Shown here: positions 7,378 through 40,197 of the stretch, in pieces
Numbering within the stretch: position 1 is the first letter of the stretch
How the letters are laid out: every line of letters starts with the position of its first letter
NCBI RefSeq assembly: GCF_000177375.1
Contig: NZ_ADFR01000014.1
Location: 1-64,000, forward strand
Source: Bulleidia extructa W1219
Lineage (GTDB): Bacteria > Bacillota_I > Bacilli_A > Erysipelotrichales > Erysipelotrichaceae
Direction of reading: 5' to 3'
Length of the DNA: 64,000 bases
The notes under the pieces: generated by a model
Seen by the model: the letters and a program-made list of their open reading frames with translations, nothing else
What the model was told of the DNA's origin: nothing
Database searches by the model: none
Made by a program: the position numbers and the translations under genes

Positions 7378-8741
7378 TGTTATCGGTTCAAGAACGGTTA
7401 GAGCAGGCTAGTGCGACGAAGCTTTCTTCACGATTGAACTCCATGATGAATAATGAGGAAGCGATGATTCGCAATGGTGATGAATTTGATGCTTTCAAAG
7501 AAAAAGTTCATCTTGAGCTATTAGATCGAATCAACTATGGAGTTAGTATCAGTGCTTCGCAAAAAGATGAAGTGTATGATTTGGTAAAGTCGATTGTTGA
7601 AAGTTTAGGTAGTGATATCAGCCGTCCGATTCGAAATCGGTTGGTGGAAGAGATATTTGATGAGACGATTGGCTTAGGACCTTTAGAGCGACTGTTAAAG
7701 GATCCGGATGTAACGGAAATCATGGTCAACGGGCCTGAACAAGTGTATGTGGAACGTCAAGGTAAAATTAGCTTGAGTGATGTTAAGTTTAAAGATAGTG
7801 GAGCTGTTTTGACGGTCATTGATCGGATTATTTCTCCTTTGGGAAGACGTTGTGATGAAAGTACTCCGATGGTGGATGCTCGTTTGCCGGATGGTTCTCG
7901 TGTCAATGCGATTATTCCTCCGGTTTCATTAGTTGGTCCATCTATCACCATTCGTAAATTCTCTAAAAAAGGGTTTGAAGTGAGTGATTTGATTCGTTTT
8001 AATTCCTTATCGTATCAAATGGCAGCTTTCTTGGAAGCTTGTGTTAAGGGAAAAGCCAATATCATTGTTTTTGGTGGAACAGGTAGCGGTAAAACCACGT
8101 TGTTAAATACTCTATCGGGTTTTATTCCGGAAAACGAGCGCATTGTGACCATTGAAGATGCGGCGGAATTGCAATTGAAACAGCCTCATAAAGTTATTTT
8201 GGAAGCTAGACCGGCCAACGTGGAAGGAAGAGGCGAAATTGCGATTCGTGATTTGGTTAAGAATGCCTTGCGTATGAGACCGGATCGTATCGTGGTCGGG
8301 GAAGTGCGTTCTGGTGAAGCTTTAGATATGTTACAAGCGATGAATACCGGACACGATGGTTCTTTGACGACCGCCCATGCGAATACGTCACGGGATTTAT
8401 TGTCTCGTTTGGAAACGATGGTGTTAATGGCGGGAATGGGATTACCTTCTCGGGCGATTCGGGAACAAATTGCCTCTGCTTTTAATATCTTAGTTCATCA
8501 AAGCCGTTTAAGAGATGGAACCAGAAAGATTATGGCGATATCGGAAGTAGTGGGAATGGAAGAGGATACCATTTTATTGCAAGATATTTTCACGTTCAAA
8601 CAAGAAGGGTTTGATAGTAATGGTCATATTCATGGCTCTTACGTACCAACAGGTATTCGACCAAAGATTTTACAACGAATCATGGATGAAGGAGTGGCTA
8701 TCAATGATCATTGGTTCAATACCACAGGAGGTAGGCCATGA
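7377..8741 (+). CDS. cpaF: Tad secretion ATPase CpaF/TadA
   Basis: The 454-residue hexameric ATPase powers Flp pilus extension and probably retraction. Walker A is GGTGSGKT at 233-240, the Walker B region is RPDRIVVGEVRSGEA near 300, and the His box TTAHANT is near 331. The N-terminal domain contains the family sequence DPDVTEIMVNGPEQVYVERQG. Length and motifs are those of a complete VirB11/PulE-type CpaF. It overlaps tadB by four bases (ATGA), consistent with coupled synthesis of motor and membrane platform. Confidence 0.95.
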   Translation: MLSVQERLEQASATKLSSRLNSMMNNEEAMIRNGDEFDAFKEKVHLELLDRINYGVSISASQKDEVYDLVKSIVESLGSDISRPIRNRLVEEIFDETIGLGPLERLLKDPDVTEIMVNGPEQVYVERQGKISLSDVKFKDSGAVLTVIDRIISPLGRRCDESTPMVDARLPDGSRVNAIIPPVSLVGPSITIRKFSKKGFEVSDLIRFNSLSYQMAAFLEACVKGKANIIVFGGTGSGKTTLLNTLSGFIPENERIVTIEDAAELQLKQPHKVILEARPANVEGRGEIAIRDLVKNALRMRPDRIVVGEVRSGEALDMLQAMNTGHDGSLTTAHANTSRDLLSRLETMVLMAGMGLPSRAIREQIASAFNILVHQSRLRDGTRKIMAISEVVGMEEDTILLQDIFTFKQEGFDSNGHIHGSYVPTGIRPKILQRIMDEGVAINDHWFNTTGGRP

Positions 8742-17376: not shown

Positions 17377-17730
17377 ATGGCAAACACCATCAAACAGAAA
17401 CGATTGGAAGGCATTATCCGTAAGAATATCTCGGATATTATTCAATTTAATTTAAAAGATCCGGATGTCGGCTTTGTGACCATTACGGATGTGGCGGTTT
17501 CTAACGATCATAGTTATGCCCATGTGTATGTGGTTTTCTTAGGAAAAAAAGAAAGAGCACAGGCTGGCTTAAAGGCTTTAAATCGAGCAAAAGGATTCAT
17601 TCGTCGGGAATTAAGTCAACGTTTGGATATTCGCCGCACGCCAGAGCTTATTTTTCAAATGGATCAAGCGGAAGAAAGAGGTCGTCATATTGATGACATC
17701 ATTAGAAAAATTCATGAAGGAGAACAATAG
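17377..17730 (+). CDS. rbfA: Ribosome-binding factor A
   Basis: The 117-residue KH-like protein acts in late 30S maturation and cold adaptation. Diagnostic segments are DPDVGFVTITDVAVSNDHSYAHVYV and the C-terminal DDIIRKIHEG. It starts two bases after infB. In most Bacillota truB follows directly; here a 5.4-kb block with WXG100 and EssC-like genes is placed between the two. Confidence 0.95.
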   Translation: MANTIKQKRLEGIIRKNISDIIQFNLKDPDVGFVTITDVAVSNDHSYAHVYVVFLGKKERAQAGLKALNRAKGFIRRELSQRLDIRRTPELIFQMDQAEERGRHIDDIIRKIHEGEQ

Positions 17731-17791
17731 TTTTCCTTTTTTTGATGGAGTTTTCATTCTTTTGGGAATAAAAAAATGAAAGGAGTTTTTT

Positions 17792-18085
17792 ATGATTAAA
17801 GTTGAACCGGAAGAATTAGAACTGCAAGCCAATAGGCTTCAACAGGATTTAGAACAATATCAGAACCAAAGCAAACAAGTATTGAATACGGTATTGAATC
17901 TAAAGGATATTTGGCATGGTAAGGATAATGAAACCTTCACCAATCGTTTATTGGAGTATCACAAGGACATTCAACAGGTCGGATTGATTCTAAATGATTA
18001 CATTCAATTTCTTAAGCAAAGTACTCAAAGTTATCGTCAAGTACAAGAGGATCTGGTATCCCAAGCACAGTCTTTGAAAGGATAG
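17792..18085 (+). CDS. WXG100-family (EsxA-like) protein
   Basis: The 97-residue, all-helical protein carries the WXG turn near its middle (LKDIWHGKDNETF, W-H-G) between two amphipathic helices. That is the defining architecture of the small secreted substrates of type VII secretion systems. There is no signal peptide, as expected. The ATG is preceded by AAAGGAG. A second WXG100-size protein starts 9 bases downstream and an EssC-like ATPase is three genes on, supporting a type VII role. It could be secreted as a helical-hairpin dimer with its neighbour. The C-terminal YxxxD/E-type export motif is not obvious (YRQVQEDL is a candidate). Confidence 0.8.
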   Translation: MIKVEPEELELQANRLQQDLEQYQNQSKQVLNTVLNLKDIWHGKDNETFTNRLLEYHKDIQQVGLILNDYIQFLKQSTQSYRQVQEDLVSQAQSLKG

Positions 18086-18094
18086 GAGGTTTTT

Positions 18095-18391
18095 ATGGCC
18101 ATACAAATATCAATTGTGAATGTTCGAGAATCTAGCCATCAATTGAAACAACAGTCTCAACAAATGATGGATACTTTAGAAGCTATCAAGCAAAAGATGT
18201 TATTGGTGCAACAGAGTTTTGAATCGGAAGCTTCAACCGAGTTTCAAAATCGTTTTTTGCAATTCTCAAAACGTTTTTTGGAAATGCAGGATACGATTCA
18301 GTCTTATATTCAATTTCTAGAGATTACAACCAGTTCTTATGAAAGTTTGGATGCAAGTCTAAAAGGAAATGCGAATGGTATGCAAGTCTAG
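18095..18391 (+). CDS. WXG100-like partner protein without the WXG motif
   Basis: The 98-residue helical-hairpin protein has the same size and register as the upstream WXG100 protein, but its turn reads FESEASTEFQNRF instead of W-X-G. Loss of the motif in one partner is known in heterodimeric type VII substrates (EsxB-type or PE-like partners). Both proteins share the pattern SYIQFLxxxTxSY near the end of helix 2, suggesting divergence from one ancestor. A clear AGGAGG site precedes the ATG. The gene overlaps the lipoprotein start by 17 bases. Confidence 0.7.
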   Translation: MAIQISIVNVRESSHQLKQQSQQMMDTLEAIKQKMLLVQQSFESEASTEFQNRFLQFSKRFLEMQDTIQSYIQFLEITTSSYESLDASLKGNANGMQV

Positions 18392-20348
18392 CAAAATTAT
18401 TTTAAGTTTGTTTCTGGGATTGACTTTATTGGCTTGTCAGAAAGAGGTAAAGGAAACCATCACTCTTGGTTCTTGGCTTCAAGCGATGGAGCAAGAATCT
18501 CATATTGAATTGACGAAAACAGCTTCTCCTTATTTTCTTCATATTCAGAAAGATCATCCTCAGTTTCAAGTGGTTCAAACGGCGGTGGATTGGAAAATAG
18601 TGGAAGAAGGCATCCGTTTGGATTTAGAAAAGCCGTTAAATAAAGAATGGTTAGCGTATACGTTGGTGAATCTATGGTCACCTCAAAAAGAAGTATCTGG
18701 TTCAAAGGTGAAAGATAAAAATAAATCACAGTTTCCTAAGCATATCGAAAAAGCCATTTCTTTAGGAATATTAGAGGTGGATCAACATCATCTTTTTCAT
18801 CCGGAAGAGGTGGTTGAAAAAGATAAAGCGATGGCTATTTTAAAGAAGGTGGTCCGTTATTTAGACGATAGAAAAGTGGATTTAAACAAAGGAAAAGTGG
18901 AATGGAAAGAACAGATGGATGTGCAGGAAATAAAGCCATCTGATTGGAATGAAAATGAACAGTCGCTTCATTTAGCTAAAAATTCTCACCTAAAAGTAGG
19001 CTCTATTGTGAAATGTCGGGATCAGTATTATCGCATCTGGAAACAAAAGAAAAACAAGGCTTTTTTAGAGAAAATTAATCCATTAGAATTAACCAAAAAA
19101 ATAGATTTTTCAGGGGAAACGAAGATTGATTGGTCACAAGCCAAGATTCAACCCATTTCTAATGGGGTTCAACCAACTGCACTAACGACTTCTTCTTATC
19201 GAAAACCCATTCAGATTTTAGGGTATCAAGGAGAATTGAAATTGGATTCTTCAGGAGTATATGCTCGTTTGGAAAAGCAACTTCCGAAGGAAGCTAAGGC
19301 TTTTGTTCAAATGGAGGTAAGTGGCTTATCGGTTAAATACGATTGGCATTCTAGGGGCTTAAAAATACCGGATGCGTATGTCCGTTTTCGCTTTCAATCT
19401 AATCAAAAAGTAGGGATTGAAAAAGGAAAAAAAGTCAGCTATCAAGCTCATTCAAAAATCAGTTTAGATGAAATCCGTTCGTATCTCATTCCTGAAAATC
19501 AATTTGTGCAAGCTAAGATTCCTTTGTGTTCCATCCAAGTTCCACTTCCTCAAATCCCCGGTTTGTATGTCCATTTGGCATTGATGGTTGAATTGGACAT
19601 TCAGGGGTATCTTCATTTTTCCCTCCAACAAATGAATTTATTGGGGTTTCAAATTCGCAATTCCCATGTCCGTTGGATTCGTAATTCCAGTCAACAAAAT
19701 TCTCTTCAATCCAATGCGTCCGCTTCTGTATTGGCTAATGTACATTTGGGATTGAGACTGGCTAAGTATGATTTAGGAAATATCGGTTTAAAAGCGGGAA
19801 TACAAGGTCGCTTAAAAGATAAAGTGGTTTTTTATGATTCTCACCAGAAAGCTCAAGAAGTTTTTGGACCCTTTGATCAACAAATTCGACAAAAAGAAGG
19901 AATACGGTATTGTCAAGATCACTCTGCCAATTGGATTTTAGAAGTTTTTTTCAATCAGGAAAATAGTCTTTTAAATAAACTGGGTATCAAAGCAAATTTT
20001 TCATTATTAACTGAGAAACAAGCCACCATTTTTCAATCACAAGCTCATCATTTAGAATCCTGTCGCCTGAATCCACCTTATGATCAGGAAAATCTTCATC
20101 ACCGAGATGGCTTTGGAATTCAAAAGCTCAGTTATATGGTTAAAAAAGGACAGTCCATTGATATTACATTAGAAGAGCTACCGGCTGGCTATTCCTTATC
20201 TGATATTGAAGTAAAAGTGGTGCATCCGGATATTATTGAAAATGACTTTCTACGCTTTAAAGGTTTACAAGAAGGAGCCAGCTCCATTCGTATCCAAACC
20301 AAAGATCAGGCACATATCCTTTATATTTCCATCATGGTTGTTTCATGA
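18375..20348 (+). CDS. Lipoprotein with SLH-like region, part of the type VII-like module
   Basis: ATG 18375 is favoured because AAAAGGA lies 7 bases upstream; the ATG at 18369 is too close to it. A lipoprotein signal ends in LTLLAC with the lipidated Cys at residue 21. Residues about 50-165 resemble two S-layer-homology-like segments (KHIEKAISLGILEV, LFHPEEVVEKDKAMAIL). The remainder is beta-rich and unrecognised, closing with an Ig-like or bacterial cadherin-like end (LPAGYSLSDIEVKVVHPD). Its position between WXG100 genes and the EssC-like gene, with a 4-base overlap with the latter, suggests an extracytoplasmic part of the secretion apparatus, perhaps replacing EssB/EsaA. That role is inference. 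Confidence 0.6.
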   Translation: MVCKSSKIILSLFLGLTLLACQKEVKETITLGSWLQAMEQESHIELTKTASPYFLHIQKDHPQFQVVQTAVDWKIVEEGIRLDLEKPLNKEWLAYTLVNLWSPQKEVSGSKVKDKNKSQFPKHIEKAISLGILEVDQHHLFHPEEVVEKDKAMAILKKVVRYLDDRKVDLNKGKVEWKEQMDVQEIKPSDWNENEQSLHLAKNSHLKVGSIVKCRDQYYRIWKQKKNKAFLEKINPLELTKKIDFSGETKIDWSQAKIQPISNGVQPTALTTSSYRKPIQILGYQGELKLDSSGVYARLEKQLPKEAKAFVQMEVSGLSVKYDWHSRGLKIPDAYVRFRFQSNQKVGIEKGKKVSYQAHSKISLDEIRSYLIPENQFVQAKIPLCSIQVPLPQIPGLYVHLALMVELDIQGYLHFSLQQMNLLGFQIRNSHVRWIRNSSQQNSLQSNASASVLANVHLGLRLAKYDLGNIGLKAGIQGRLKDKVVFYDSHQKAQEVFGPFDQQIRQKEGIRYCQDHSANWILEVFFNQENSLLNKLGIKANFSLLTEKQATIFQSQAHHLESCRLNPPYDQENLHHRDGFGIQKLSYMVKKGQSIDITLEELPAGYSLSDIEVKVVHPDIIENDFLRFKGLQEGASSIRIQTKDQAHILYISIMVVS

Positions 20349-22969
20349 GATTATTGCTTTATCATCAAAAGCAGGTAAGGCAAATTGCGTTGAATGAGTG
20401 TTTTGCGGATAAATTAAAGGTGGAATTTCATGAGGGATTTTATTTAGGTAAGAAACGTTTGGAAAGTCATCAGTGGCTGTATTTTCGCTATCATCATGAA
20501 CAGTATGGTCTTTGGATTGAAGATCATCCAAGCTATAGCTATATTTTTCCGTGCGACTTATGGCTGGAAAAAGACCTTCCGAAAGAAGTTCCAATCCTAA
20601 AATTAAAAGCCAATGGAGAAATAGAACCTTTGGGTCGACAATGGGCTAAAGGAGATGGTTTGGATTACTACCAATACCATTTAGAATGGCATGACTTTGG
20701 CTGGCTGGTGAATACAAATCTTTTGGAAAAGAAGGTGAAGATTGAAAAACATCATAGAAAAGAACTCTATTTTCCTAAAATAGAAGAACCGATCGTTCCA
20801 AAGATTTCCGATCCTGCCATATCTTCCATTCATCCAAAGCGTTCTCTTTTTCTTCAAATGGGGCCAGGTTTAACCATGGCTTTTGCGACTTTGATGAATG
20901 CGATGGTTCAATCAATCCGCTTATATGAACAAGGAAAGCCTTATGAAGAGCTTCTCTTTGTGTTTTTAATGCCGATGATGATGTTAATCAGCATCCTTCT
21001 TTGGCAACCTTTAAATCGTTTTGCGGAAAATAAACAAGAAAAGAAAATTCAAGAAGTGCAAAAAGAAGAATATCGGAAAAAAGCAGAGAAAAATTGGCAT
21101 TCTTTTCTAACAATATTTCAATCGTATCAAGAAACCATCAAACAATCATTTTTTTCTTTAGATAGTTGCTTAAGGCATCCGTCCGGTATTTGGATGGGGT
21201 TGGGATTTTACCAAGAAACCATTCCATATCTCATACCAAAGACGATCAAAAAGCTAAAGATTGAAAATTTTACGAATCAACAATTATTATTTTCGAGTAG
21301 TGAAGAGGATTTTATTCAATGGATTAGAAGATGGGATGCTCTTTATCAGGCCGGTGATGTACCGGCTTATTTATTGGCTTCGAAAACTTGGTTTTCCAAT
21401 TATCCTGAAGTGTTACAACTTCCGATTTTCTATCATCATGGGAAAAGACATCTTTATGAAGCTGGTCAAACATTTGAAATGGAGGAAGGAGGCATTCTTT
21501 TTTCATTAATTCCTTTAACCGATAAACACAAAGGAACTTGTTTCGTATGGAGTCATCAAGCCCTTCAGTATCCTTTTGAAAAAAGGCTGTTGTATTGTCA
21601 ATCGAAAATGATCGTAGAAGATCAAATGGAAAAAAGAATTTATCAGCCTTTAGACATAGAACAAAAAGATTATCGGGCAGATCCATATCAAATTCAAAAA
21701 ACGAAAAGTAATCCCCATCAAAAAGGCTTGGTTTGTGTGATGGAAGAGGGGAATTTATCATTAGATCTAAGTGAAAACAAAATGGGACCTCACGCTATCA
21801 TTACAGGAACAACCGGAAGCGGGAAAAGTGAATTGGTGCTGTATTGGCTTTTAAGTATGGCCAAACAAAATTCTCCCGAACAACTTCAAATTTTATTATT
21901 TGATTTTAAAGGTGACAGTTTAAAACAATCTCTTCGTTTTAAGGGAAAGACCATTCCGCATATTAATGCCAGCATTAGTGATTTACAAGTCGATGAAGTA
22001 GATCGTGCTTTATGTGGCTTGGAACAGGAATGTCGATATCGAGAAGCACTTTTTCAAAAAGCAAGTACTTGTTTTCAAGAACCAATCACGAGTTTGGCAC
22101 AATATCAAAAATACCAAAAAAAGGGATGGGAACGGTTACCTGAAATAGTGTTGGTTTTTGATGAATTTGCTCAATTTAAACAACGGTTTCCAGATAAACT
22201 AAATCCATTTGTGACATTAGCCAGAATTGGTCGAAGTTTAGGAATTCATTTTATTTTAATCACCCAAAAAGCCAGTGGTGTGATTTCCGAACAAATTTGG
22301 GCTAACATTCGTTTGAGAATTTGTATGAAAGTGACGGATCGGCAGGATTGTTTGGATACACTTCACCAAGATCGAAGAAAAGAATTAAAGTCAGCGGGAG
22401 ATTTTATTGCTCATTATGATGAGACATACATTCAGGGACATTGTCCTTACTTGGAAGATTACATTTCTCCAAAAGAGAATAAGGTGGAATTAGACCATCA
22501 GTTACAACCTATACCGACCTATAAGAAAGGTCAAATACGATTGCGAGAATATCTGTTAGAAAAGATTATTGAAAAAAAAGAAGAAAACCATTTGCGTTCG
22601 ATTTGGTTAAAAGCGCCAAGTTCCGATTTATTAAGAAATTCTCTTCTCGGTATTTTGGATGATTATGAAACAGCTCGCTATATCTCGATACCTTTAGAGG
22701 AAGTAAAAAGACCTATTTTATTCATATACGATGATCCAAAGGATTTATATTATCTTAAAAAACGACTCGGAAAAGATACTTTCCAAGCACGGTCCATTCA
22801 TGAAAAGATCGGTTTGTCAGAAGAAAAGTATTTTATCTTGTATAAAGGTCCATTGACGTTAGATCGAATGAGTCAATACTTTCACCAAATGAAACGGATT
22901 CATTCTTTAAGAAAAGGAGAAGCTCTATGTTTGTATCAGGGAAAGATTCAAAAGATTCTGATATTTTAA
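20345..22969 (+). CDS. Compact EssC/EccC-like FtsK/SpoIIIE ATPase of a type VII secretion system
   Basis: The 874-residue protein has an N-terminal soluble domain (about 1-165; position and size fit the FHA region of EssC), two transmembrane helices (about 173-225) and one FtsK/SpoIIIE ATPase. Walker A is GTTGSGKS at 488-495, Walker B is VLVFDEFAQ with Asp606-Glu607, and the family block ARIGRSLGIHFILITQKASG follows. After about residue 715 there is only about 160 residues of remnant with no Walker motif, whereas EssC/EccC normally carries two or three ATPase domains and exceeds 1,200 residues. It presumably drives WXG100 export. The 5' end overlaps the lipoprotein gene by 4 bases. Confidence 0.8.
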   Translation: MRLLLYHQKQVRQIALNECFADKLKVEFHEGFYLGKKRLESHQWLYFRYHHEQYGLWIEDHPSYSYIFPCDLWLEKDLPKEVPILKLKANGEIEPLGRQWAKGDGLDYYQYHLEWHDFGWLVNTNLLEKKVKIEKHHRKELYFPKIEEPIVPKISDPAISSIHPKRSLFLQMGPGLTMAFATLMNAMVQSIRLYEQGKPYEELLFVFLMPMMMLISILLWQPLNRFAENKQEKKIQEVQKEEYRKKAEKNWHSFLTIFQSYQETIKQSFFSLDSCLRHPSGIWMGLGFYQETIPYLIPKTIKKLKIENFTNQQLLFSSSEEDFIQWIRRWDALYQAGDVPAYLLASKTWFSNYPEVLQLPIFYHHGKRHLYEAGQTFEMEEGGILFSLIPLTDKHKGTCFVWSHQALQYPFEKRLLYCQSKMIVEDQMEKRIYQPLDIEQKDYRADPYQIQKTKSNPHQKGLVCVMEEGNLSLDLSENKMGPHAIITGTTGSGKSELVLYWLLSMAKQNSPEQLQILLFDFKGDSLKQSLRFKGKTIPHINASISDLQVDEVDRALCGLEQECRYREALFQKASTCFQEPITSLAQYQKYQKKGWERLPEIVLVFDEFAQFKQRFPDKLNPFVTLARIGRSLGIHFILITQKASGVISEQIWANIRLRICMKVTDRQDCLDTLHQDRRKELKSAGDFIAHYDETYIQGHCPYLEDYISPKENKVELDHQLQPIPTYKKGQIRLREYLLEKIIEKKEENHLRSIWLKAPSSDLLRNSLLGILDDYETARYISIPLEEVKRPILFIYDDPKDLYYLKKRLGKDTFQARSIHEKIGLSEEKYFILYKGPLTLDRMSQYFHQMKRIHSLRKGEALCLYQGKIQKILIF

Positions 22970-23169
22970 GAAGAATGATTTTAAAAACGAATTTCTCAGA
23001 ACATTGGTATGAACTGCCCAGTCATCAATCTTTAGCAGAAGCCTTCCCTGAGTATGAATTATTTTATGATTTAGTGCAAGGAGAATGGATTGATGCTGAT
23101 GTAGCGATAGAGAGACTTTGCAAGGGGAACCGTCTTCCATATGTAGAAGCCTTTCAGCTCTTTGAATAA
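22927..23169 (+). CDS. Small acidic hypothetical protein overlapping the EssC-like gene
   Basis: The 80-residue frame starts at ATG 22927, 5 bases after AAAGGAGAA, and overlaps the 3' end of the EssC-like gene by 43 bases in another frame. The real ribosome binding site and codon pattern argue that it is expressed. The sequence (EAFPEYELFYDLVQGEWID, DADVAIERLCKGNRLPYVE) is soluble and acidic, with no membrane helix or known domain. Its position makes it the last gene of the type VII-like block. It might be a chaperone or regulator, but nothing in the sequence proves this. Confidence 0.5.
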   Translation: MFVSGKDSKDSDILRRMILKTNFSEHWYELPSHQSLAEAFPEYELFYDLVQGEWIDADVAIERLCKGNRLPYVEAFQLFE

Positions 23170-23173
23170 ATGG

Positions 23174-23179
23174 TATAAT
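23174..23179 (+). promoter_or_regulatory. Extended -10 promoter of truB, probably leaderless
   Basis: TGGTATAAT contains a perfect -10 (23174-23179) with the TG extension. Only six bases separate it from the truB ATG at 23186, so transcription should begin at or next to the start codon. No good -35 and no ribosome binding site are present. Confidence 0.6.
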
Positions 23180-23185
23180 ATCCCC

Positions 23186-24028
23186 ATGGATGCAATCTAC
23201 TTAATCAATAAACCGCAAGGTATGACATCTTTTGATGTGATTGCGAAAATGCGCAAGGTGTTACAAATGAAAAAAATTGGCCATACCGGCACTTTAGATC
23301 CTGAAGCTGGTGGCCTTTTAATTGTTTTGACCGGCAAATTCACAAAGTGTATTCCGTATTGTGTGAAAGATCATAAACACTACATCGCTCAATTTGAATT
23401 AGGTAAAGCTAGCGATACGGAAGATGTGTTTGGACAGATTATTCAAGAAAGAAAAGCCCGTAAACATACCGCTTTAGAATTAAATGAAATCTGTTCTTCC
23501 ATGAAAGGACGCTATCTTCAAATTCCTCCTATGTATTCCGCTAAAAAAATAAAAGGGAAAAAATTGTATGAATACGCTCGAGAAGGAAAGGAAATGGAAA
23601 GAAAAACGGTGGAAGTAGAAATCAGTGATCTTTCAGTTCGTCATCTTCATGATGATATATATGAGATGGAAGCGGTGGTTTCTTCGGGGACTTACATACG
23701 CACTTTGATCGTGGATTTTGCGAAAAAATTAGGTGAATTAGCGTTGATGACTTCTTTGAAGAGAGTGGGAATTGAACACTTGTCTTTAAATCAGAGTGTT
23801 CCTTTAGCCGATTTCGATAAGACAACAAAGGGAATTAGATTGTTTGATTGTGTGAATCCTGCTTATCCCTTAGTTGAAGTAAAAAATCCTGCGCCTATTT
23901 TGCAAGGTAAAAAAATAGCGTTAGATCGAAATGAAGAAATTGTCTTATTGTATCATCAACAAGACATACTAGCGGCCTATCAAAAAGAGAATTCAGGTTT
24001 ATATCGTTGCTTAAGAGGCTTATTTTAA
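23186..24028 (+). CDS. truB: tRNA pseudouridine(55) synthase TruB
   Basis: The 280-residue enzyme makes pseudouridine 55 in the T-loop of tRNAs. The start MDAIYLINKPQGMTS matches family N-termini, which supports ATG 23186 over the upstream TTG at 23162. The catalytic Asp38 is in HTGTLDPEAGG, and the segment SSGTYIRTLIVDFAKKLG is present. No Shine-Dalgarno sequence precedes the ATG and a -10 box lies 6 bases upstream, so the mRNA is probably leaderless. The stop overlaps the ribF start (TAATG). Confidence 0.95.
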   Translation: MDAIYLINKPQGMTSFDVIAKMRKVLQMKKIGHTGTLDPEAGGLLIVLTGKFTKCIPYCVKDHKHYIAQFELGKASDTEDVFGQIIQERKARKHTALELNEICSSMKGRYLQIPPMYSAKKIKGKKLYEYAREGKEMERKTVEVEISDLSVRHLHDDIYEMEAVVSSGTYIRTLIVDFAKKLGELALMTSLKRVGIEHLSLNQSVPLADFDKTTKGIRLFDCVNPAYPLVEVKNPAPILQGKKIALDRNEEIVLLYHQQDILAAYQKENSGLYRCLRGLF

Positions 24029-33322: not shown

Positions 33323-33396
33323 GGTGAGTTGGTGAAATGGTTTAACACACCGCCCTCTCAAGGCGGGATGTGCGGGTTCGAATCCCGTACTCACTA
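33323..33396 (+). tRNA. tRNA-Glu (anticodon CUC)
   Basis: The 74-base cloverleaf has an acceptor stem GGTGAGT/ACTCACT, anticodon stem CCGCC/GGCGG with loop CTCTCAA (anticodon CTC, reading GAG), and T-arm GCGGGTTCGAATCCCGT. The CCA end is not encoded. The anticodon stem-loop matches the common bacterial tRNA-Glu form. It is followed at once by a terminator, so it is a single-tRNA unit between rplT and the FemABX genes. Confidence 0.92.
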
Positions 33397-40125: not shown

Positions 40126-40197
40126 TGGGGTATAGCCAAGCGGTAAGGCAACTGGCTCTGAACCAGTCATGCGTGAGTTCGAATCTCTCTACCCCAG
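40126..40197 (+). tRNA. tRNA-Gln (anticodon CUG)
   Basis: The 72-base cloverleaf has acceptor stem TGGGGTA/TACCCCA, discriminator G, anticodon stem ACTGG/CCAGT with loop CTCTGAA (anticodon CTG, codon CAG) and T-arm GAGTTCGAATCTC. The weak T1-A72 pair is typical of bacterial tRNA-Gln. CCA is not encoded. A terminator follows directly. Confidence 0.93.

What the first reader, a model, noticed from the sequence alone, without database searches (positions are those of the whole stretch)
17792..23169. Minimal type VII secretion-like module inside the nusA-infB-rbfA-truB gene order
Seen: a WXG100 protein, a second WXG100-size protein without the motif, an SLH-like lipoprotein and an EssC-like ATPase (plus an 80-residue protein) lie between rbfA and truB, with no clear promoter of their own. 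Known: T7SSb loci normally carry esaA, essA, essB and esaB; none is here, and rbfA-truB are usually adjacent. Inferred: either a reduced secretion machine that uses the lipoprotein as its envelope part, or a system whose other parts are elsewhere. Coupling to ribosome biogenesis genes may give constitutive growth-linked expression.
Basis: partly seen in the sequence, partly recalled or inferred. Interest (0 to 1): 0.75.

Follow-up and report, generated by a model that had tools for sequence, protein, structure and literature searches.

The report
Undescribed lipoprotein-type type VII secretion module
Many gut bacteria of one family (Erysipelotrichaceae) carry the same five-gene kit that looks like a stripped-down protein-export machine (type VII secretion) of a sort not described in the papers I could search, and in this genome its motor protein has been cut down even further, so it could show which parts such a machine really needs.

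Summary
The block is real: esx1, esx2, an SLH/Big_2 lipoprotein, an EssC-like ATPase and an 80-residue protein lie between rbfA and truB (17792-23169). It is not a local oddity. The lipoprotein occurs in 128 of 273 family genomes (16 of 60 genera), next to EssC in the loci read, often beside rbfA and truB. EssB and EsaA models score above cut-off in only 2 and 0 of 273 genomes. The lipoprotein is therefore a shared, uncharacterised part of an undescribed T7SS subtype. Esx1 always carries WxG; Esx2 almost never does but always carries YxxxD/E, suggesting a heterodimeric substrate. Peculiar to this genome and its sister species is EssC: ATPase domain D1 plus a short tail remain, D2-D3 are nowhere else in the genome, yet the genes are under purifying selection. 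Secretion itself is inferred, not shown.

The parts
17377..17730 (+). rbfA, last gene of the upstream rimP-nusA-ylxR-infB-rbfA group (neighbour, not part of the system)
   Evidence: Pfam RBFA; same order in G031
17716..17739 (+). Terminator-like hairpin overlapping the rbfA stop codon, followed by a T run
   Evidence: 10 pairs, -10.9 kcal/mol, z -4.0; counterpart in 22 of 27 loci, 0.5 expected
17792..18085 (+). esx1, WXG100 protein carrying the W-x-G motif
   Evidence: Pfam WXG100 43.2 bits; WxG in 42 of 42 homologues
18095..18391 (+). esx2, WXG100-family protein without WxG but with C-terminal YxxxD (YESLD)
   Evidence: Pfam WXG100 35.6 bits; Yxxx[DE] in 48 of 48, WxG in 2 of 48 homologues
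18369..20348 (+). Lipoprotein, 659 aa: signal helix and lipobox Cys23, SLH-like region about 28-167, long beta-rich middle of unknown fold, C-terminal Big_2 Ig-like domain
   Evidence: Homologues beside EssC in family genomes; Cys23 invariant; Big_2 in 35 and SLH in 10 of 43 homologues; AlphaFold model, SLH match to 3pyw/6bt4
20345..22969 (+). EssC/TsxC-like membrane ATPase, 874 aa: degenerate FHA-like N-terminus, putative transmembrane segment, single ATPase domain D1 (Walker A at 488), short tail; most of D2 and D3 missing
   Evidence: TIGR03928 470-685; alignment with longer relatives; Walker A position; start of D2 kept; D2-D3 not elsewhere in the genome
22927..23169 (+). EsaB/YukD-type ubiquitin-fold protein (TsxB), 80 aa
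   Evidence: Position and family profile; AlphaFold beta-grasp, pLDDT 83, matches ubiquitin-like folds
23171..23179 (+). Extended -10 (TGGTATAAT) just before the truB ATG: probable truB promoter, leaderless mRNA
   Evidence: Exact TATAAT shortly before the truB start in 25 of the 26 loci printed, window included
23186..24028 (+). truB (listed ORF starts at TTG 23162; likely start ATG 23186); neighbour
   Evidence: Pfam TruB_N; sequence

Best explanation
The block is a self-contained type VII secretion system of an undescribed, Erysipelotrichaceae-centred subtype. Shown: five genes in fixed order (two WXG100 proteins, SLH/Big_2 lipoprotein, EssC-type FtsK/SpoIIIE ATPase, EsaB-type protein), no detectable EssB/EsaA/EssA, and a place in the genome between a terminator-like hairpin and a promoter-like sequence of truB. 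Inferred mechanism: Esx1 and Esx2 form a heterodimer whose bipartite export signal is split, WxG on Esx1 and YxxxD on Esx2; the EssC-type ATPase with the EsaB-type protein moves it through the membrane; the lipoprotein, lipid-anchored outside and held to the wall by its SLH region, is the extracytoplasmic part standing in for EsaA/EssB. In this genome and its sister species the ATPase has lost most of D2 and D3, so substrate engagement must use D1 (and the remaining tail) alone.
For: Lipoprotein next to EssC in 57 loci, nearly all in the same order with the esx genes and the small protein. Lipoprotein in 128 of 273 family genomes and 63 of 70 congeners. EssB over cut-off in 2 of 273, EsaA in 0 (5 weak), EssA in 0. 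The profile of the small proteins picks out 54 small proteins in other T7SS loci, 52 of them next to EssC. Split WxG/YxxxD motifs, matching the bipartite signal reviewed in PMC10765036. Purifying selection between the two D1-only species: pN/pS 0.09 for both esx, 0.25 lipoprotein, 0.29 EssC, 0.17 within D1. EssC and lipoprotein distances follow InfB (r = 0.70; truB-infB r = 0.89), so largely vertical descent. Terminator and promoter patterns.
Against: No secretion, expression or interaction data. In S. aureus, EssC lacking D3 or D2-D3 does not secrete and D2 is needed to assemble the complex (PMC9436818), so the D1-only form may not work the same way. EssC D1 of the two species sits on a very long branch (1.93). 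No substrate beyond the two WXG100 proteins was recognised. Unrecognisable partner genes elsewhere are possible. The central lipoprotein domain has no assignable fold, and the SLH and envelope roles are by analogy.
Confidence: 0.62

Rival explanations
1. A decaying T7SS: in this genome-reduced lineage the system has lost most of EssC and is on the way out, with the Esx proteins kept for a while or for another role.
For: EssC lost about 250 residues relative to congeners; very long D1 branch; small genomes of 1.42 and 1.55 Mb; S. aureus EssC without D2-D3 is inactive.
Against: All five ORFs are intact in two species that share the same architecture; D1 keeps its Walker motifs and is the best conserved part of EssC; pN/pS well below 1 for esx, lipoprotein and EssC.
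Confidence: 0.18
2. Part of a larger T7SS whose other membrane subunits are encoded elsewhere and are too divergent for the models used.
For: EssA-type and EsaA-type proteins are poorly conserved; 5 of 273 family genomes have sub-cut-off EsaA matches; EssA gives scattered weak hits.
Against: No over-cut-off EssB, EsaA or EssA in this genome, while EssB and weaker EsaA matches were found in G005 and G129, so the searches work in this family; in the loci read no other gene accompanies the module consistently.
Confidence: 0.14
3. The WXG100 pair itself is the effector: Esx1-Esx2 acts on membranes or as a surface factor (Esx2 resembles the NCBIfam 'pore-forming ESAT-6' model), and the module exports nothing else. 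Compatible with the main explanation; it concerns the cargo.
For: Esx2 hits NF035934 (78 bits, below its cut-off of 100); no LXG protein over cut-off in any of 70 congeners; no other WXG100 protein in the genome.
Against: Below the model's cut-off; absence of LXG does not exclude other substrate classes.
Confidence: 0.35

Closest known systems
T7SSb (Yuk/Ess; B. subtilis, S. aureus)
   Same: WXG100 proteins, FtsK/SpoIIIE-type EssC with an FHA-like N-terminus, EsaB-type ubiquitin-fold protein
   Different: No EssB, EsaA or EssA detected; extra SLH/Big_2 lipoprotein; two motif-split WXG100 proteins; EssC shorter, and D1-only in this genome
T7SSg (Garrett et al. 2024, PMC11217815; Acetivibrio, Paenibacillus)
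   Same: Simple five-part system: two WXG100 proteins, ubiquitin-like TsgB, ATPase TsgC and one extra protein
   Different: The extra protein there is a DUF5050 beta-propeller beside Tad pilus genes; here an SLH/Big_2 lipoprotein beside rbfA/truB
T7SSd/e/j (Garrett et al. 2024, PMC11217815)
   Same: Ig-like domains in an extracytoplasmic component (TsxI) proposed to span the envelope
   Different: TsdI is large with a C-terminal membrane helix, and these systems carry kinases and other parts; no kinase in the five-gene module
T7SS locus of a Clostridiaceae genome (L189)
   Same: Two Esx proteins, EsaB-type protein and a homologue of the lipoprotein (E 7.8e-55)
   Different: Full-length 1548-aa EssC, different gene order, and a kinase-TPR and a VWA-FHA protein alongside

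Membership tests
Type VII secretion system (general) | WXG100-family protein | tested here: met
   Two, both over the Pfam cut-off
Type VII secretion system (general) | Membrane-bound EccC/EssC-type FtsK/SpoIIIE ATPase | tested here: met
   PF01580 72 bits; TIGR03928 E 6.7e-59 but partial and below the equivalog cut-off
Type VII secretion system (general) | ATPase-dependent export of the WXG100 proteins | not testable with these tools
   Needs a secretion assay
T7SSb | EsaB/YukD ubiquitin-like protein | tested here: met
   Family profile and fold; the window protein itself gives no Pfam YukD hit
T7SSb | EssB/YukC pseudokinase | tested here: not met
   No match over cut-off in the genome; 2 of 273 family genomes
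T7SSb | EsaA | tested here: not met
   TIGR03929: none in this genome, 0 of 273 over cut-off, 5 weak
T7SSb | EssA | tested here: inconclusive
   PF10661: 0 of 273 over cut-off, but the family is small and divergent
T7SSb | EssC with ATPase domains D1-D2-D3 | tested here: not met
   D1 and the start of D2 only; D2-D3 profile finds nothing in G000 or G031, positive in the six controls
T7SSg | DUF5050 beta-propeller TsgL | tested here: not met
   The fifth protein is SLH/Big_2 with a beta-rich middle
T7SSd/e/j | Ser/Thr kinase TsxD at the locus | tested here: not met
   None of the five genes is a kinase; the rest of the genome was not searched for kinases
T7SSa | EccB, EccD, mycosin MycP | not tested
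   Not searched

The most novel reading that the evidence does not exclude
A complete T7SS can consist of five proteins, with one SLH/Big_2 lipoprotein replacing EsaA, EssA and EssB, and in this lineage it works with an EssC that has a single ATPase domain and no D3, exporting an obligate heterodimer whose WxG and YxxxD halves of the signal sit on different subunits.
Probability: 0.4. Interest if true: 0.8.

Novelty: new variant of a known kind. Interest (0 to 1): 0.62.

Why it matters
T7SSs are described as multi-part membrane machines, and in S. aureus every ATPase domain of EssC is needed for secretion. A family-wide five-gene version, with one species pair that has discarded most of two ATPase domains, is a natural deletion experiment. 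It makes a standing question directly testable: what is the smallest machine that exports WXG100 proteins, and where is the substrate recognised? It also gives a likely role to an uncharacterised lipoprotein found in about half of the Erysipelotrichaceae genomes searched, a family common in gut samples, for which the papers I could search hold almost no T7SS work.

Tried and rejected
Operon coupling to ribosome biogenesis: not supported on terminator and promoter patterns, pending RNA data. Block as a recent insertion or mobile element: rejected, since it is shared by many genera and tracks InfB. Split gene supplying D2-D3 elsewhere: searched, not found. Assembly artefact of the short EssC: rejected, the closed genome G031 has the same architecture. 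D3's last strand kept at the EssC C-terminus: suggested by the alignment but not distinguishable from shuffles (6.2 against 5.7 bits), so not claimed. P-loop counting to set this clade apart from other EssC: no difference with the strict motif. Single-protein scans of genome and viral collections with the window EssC found nothing; an alignment query worked. The lipoprotein alignment was too divergent to search with. Foldseek of the lipoprotein's middle gave only low-probability pore and barrel matches, not used.

Full report
What is there. The window holds five intact forward ORFs between rbfA and truB: esx1 (17792-18085), esx2 (18095-18391), a 659-aa lipoprotein (18369-20348), an 874-aa EssC-like ATPase (20345-22969) and an 80-aa protein (22927-23169). 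Both small helical proteins are over the Pfam WXG100 cut-off (43.2 and 35.6 bits; cut-off 27.3), and the ATPase has one FtsK/SpoIIIE domain aligning to EssC only over residues 470-685. The genome (1.42 Mb, 16 contigs, 97.9% complete) has one other over-cut-off FtsK/SpoIIIE protein and no other WXG100 protein.

It is not a local oddity. A congener with a closed 1.55-Mb genome (G031) has the same block at the same place (esx 89%, lipoprotein 72%, EssC 68% identical), with an extra Cna_B surface protein between rbfA and esx1. The lipoprotein has homologues in 128 of 273 family genomes, in 16 of 60 genera, 63 of them among 70 congeners. In the loci read, esx1-esx2-lipoprotein-EssC-small protein recurs in the same order; some rows look incomplete because of contig ends or because my ORF picker masked a gene. 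Of 57 loci with lipoprotein and EssC, 35 have rbfA upstream and 37 have truB downstream on the same strand, in eight numbered genera each. In genera g3, g45, g47 and g57 the module lies elsewhere. In 16 family genomes read downstream of infB that lack it at this site, rbfA is not directly followed by truB. EssC and lipoprotein distances correlate with InfB (r = 0.70 each; truB with InfB 0.89), which points to mostly vertical descent. In a D1 tree, a fully supported branch separates most lipoprotein-associated EssC from the rest, with a few exceptions, several on long branches.

What is missing. EssB (PF10140) is over cut-off in 2 of 273 family genomes, EsaA (TIGR03929) in none (5 weak), EssA (PF10661) in none; this genome has none of the three. 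G005 and G129 do have EssB and weaker EsaA matches, which shows the searches work in this family. LXG (PF04740) has no over-cut-off match in 70 congeners.

The 80-residue protein. Pfam does not recognise it, but relatives at the same position give weak YukD matches. A profile of these small proteins finds 54 small proteins in other T7SS loci, 52 adjacent to EssC. The window protein's AlphaFold model (pLDDT 83) is a beta-grasp fold that matches ubiquitin-like proteins, best E 1.5e-3. I read it as the EsaB/TsxB component; the evidence is strong for the family and moderate for this divergent member.

The lipoprotein. Cys23 is invariant in 43 homologues. Pfam finds Big_2 in 35 and SLH in 10 of 43, and the family profile matches the SLH domain of the S-layer protein Sap. 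The window model (mean pLDDT 74, so moderate) matches Sap SLH structures with probability 1.00, while the long beta-rich middle has no credible match. A homologue also sits in a Clostridiaceae T7SS locus with kinase and VWA-FHA genes.

The Esx pair. In this clade W-x-G is in 42 of 42 Esx1 and 2 of 48 Esx2; Yxxx[DE] in the C-terminal part is in 48 of 48 Esx2 and 2 of 42 Esx1. In known WXG100 dimers the export arm of one subunit lies next to the WxG of the other, forming a bipartite signal (PMC10765036). Splitting the two motifs predicts an obligate heterodimer. This is inference from sequence.

The short ATPase. Relatives aligned here are about 1065-1360 aa; congeners of about 1080 aa keep D2 but not D3; this genome and G031 keep D1 and the beginning of D2. 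A D2-D3 profile finds nothing in G000 or G031 and is positive in six controls. In S. aureus, EssC without D3 or D2-D3 does not secrete and D2 is needed for complex assembly (PMC9436818). Either this system works differently or it is decaying. Purifying selection favours function: pN/pS 0.09 (both esx), 0.25 (lipoprotein), 0.29 (EssC; 0.17 in D1), in the range of neighbouring genes; the small protein's 0.61 is hard to read because it is short and overlaps EssC. Synonymous sites are near saturation, so these ratios are rough.

Expression. A terminator-like hairpin follows rbfA in 22 of 27 loci against 0.5 expected, and in none of 32 after infB; in the window it folds at -10.9 kcal/mol, z -4.0. 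A G-rich patch plus -10-like pattern before esx1 is enriched (24 of 42, shuffled mean 1.8), but the patterns were chosen after seeing the sequences, so that test is weak. truB has TATAAT just before its ATG in 25 of the 26 loci printed, including the window. The module therefore looks like its own transcription unit beside conserved neighbours, not a member of the ribosome operon.

Known systems. Garrett et al. 2024 (PMC11217815) describe T7SSa-j; none of the parts described there is an SLH lipoprotein, and Erysipelotrichaceae are not mentioned in its text. Searches for a later subtype letter and for T7SS with S-layer-homology lipoproteins found no description; subscription papers are not covered. 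The module shares the T7SS core and fails tested T7SSb features (EssB, EsaA, D2-D3), so I file it as an undescribed variant of type VII secretion. Export itself remains untested.

Noticed in passing
window 23171-23186 and the corresponding site in relatives: truB appears to have an extended -10 promoter only a few bases before its ATG, suggesting a leaderless mRNA across the family.
   Followed up: partly
L043:5261-6967: In the sister species a Cna_B-repeat LPXTG surface protein sits between rbfA and esx1; absent from the window.
   Followed up: partly
L104:11900-14638 and corresponding genes in L102, L105, L112, L113, L117, L121: Where the module lies away from rbfA/truB (g3, g45, g47, g57) it is followed by a protein of about 870-916 aa, in L104 with glucosaminidase and Big_3 domains; in L112 an RluD-like pseudouridine synthase gene comes next.
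   Followed up: partly
L052, L055: Other genera of the family carry a different T7SS locus; the L052 one has an FHA/DUF6382 protein, an Ig-like protein and a DUF4176 protein, reminiscent of T7SSe.
   Followed up: no
L114 (G006:C1 about 1054951-1056300): A 1197-aa protein weakly similar to the lipoprotein (E 8e-9) occurs in a stretch with no EssC beside it.
   Followed up: no
window 8046-8114: Weak FtsK/SpoIIIE profile match (19 bits, below cut-off) in a 460-aa open frame, unrelated to this block.
   Followed up: no
window 33323-33396 and 40126-40197: Two tRNA genes, the only Rfam matches over threshold in the window.
   Followed up: no
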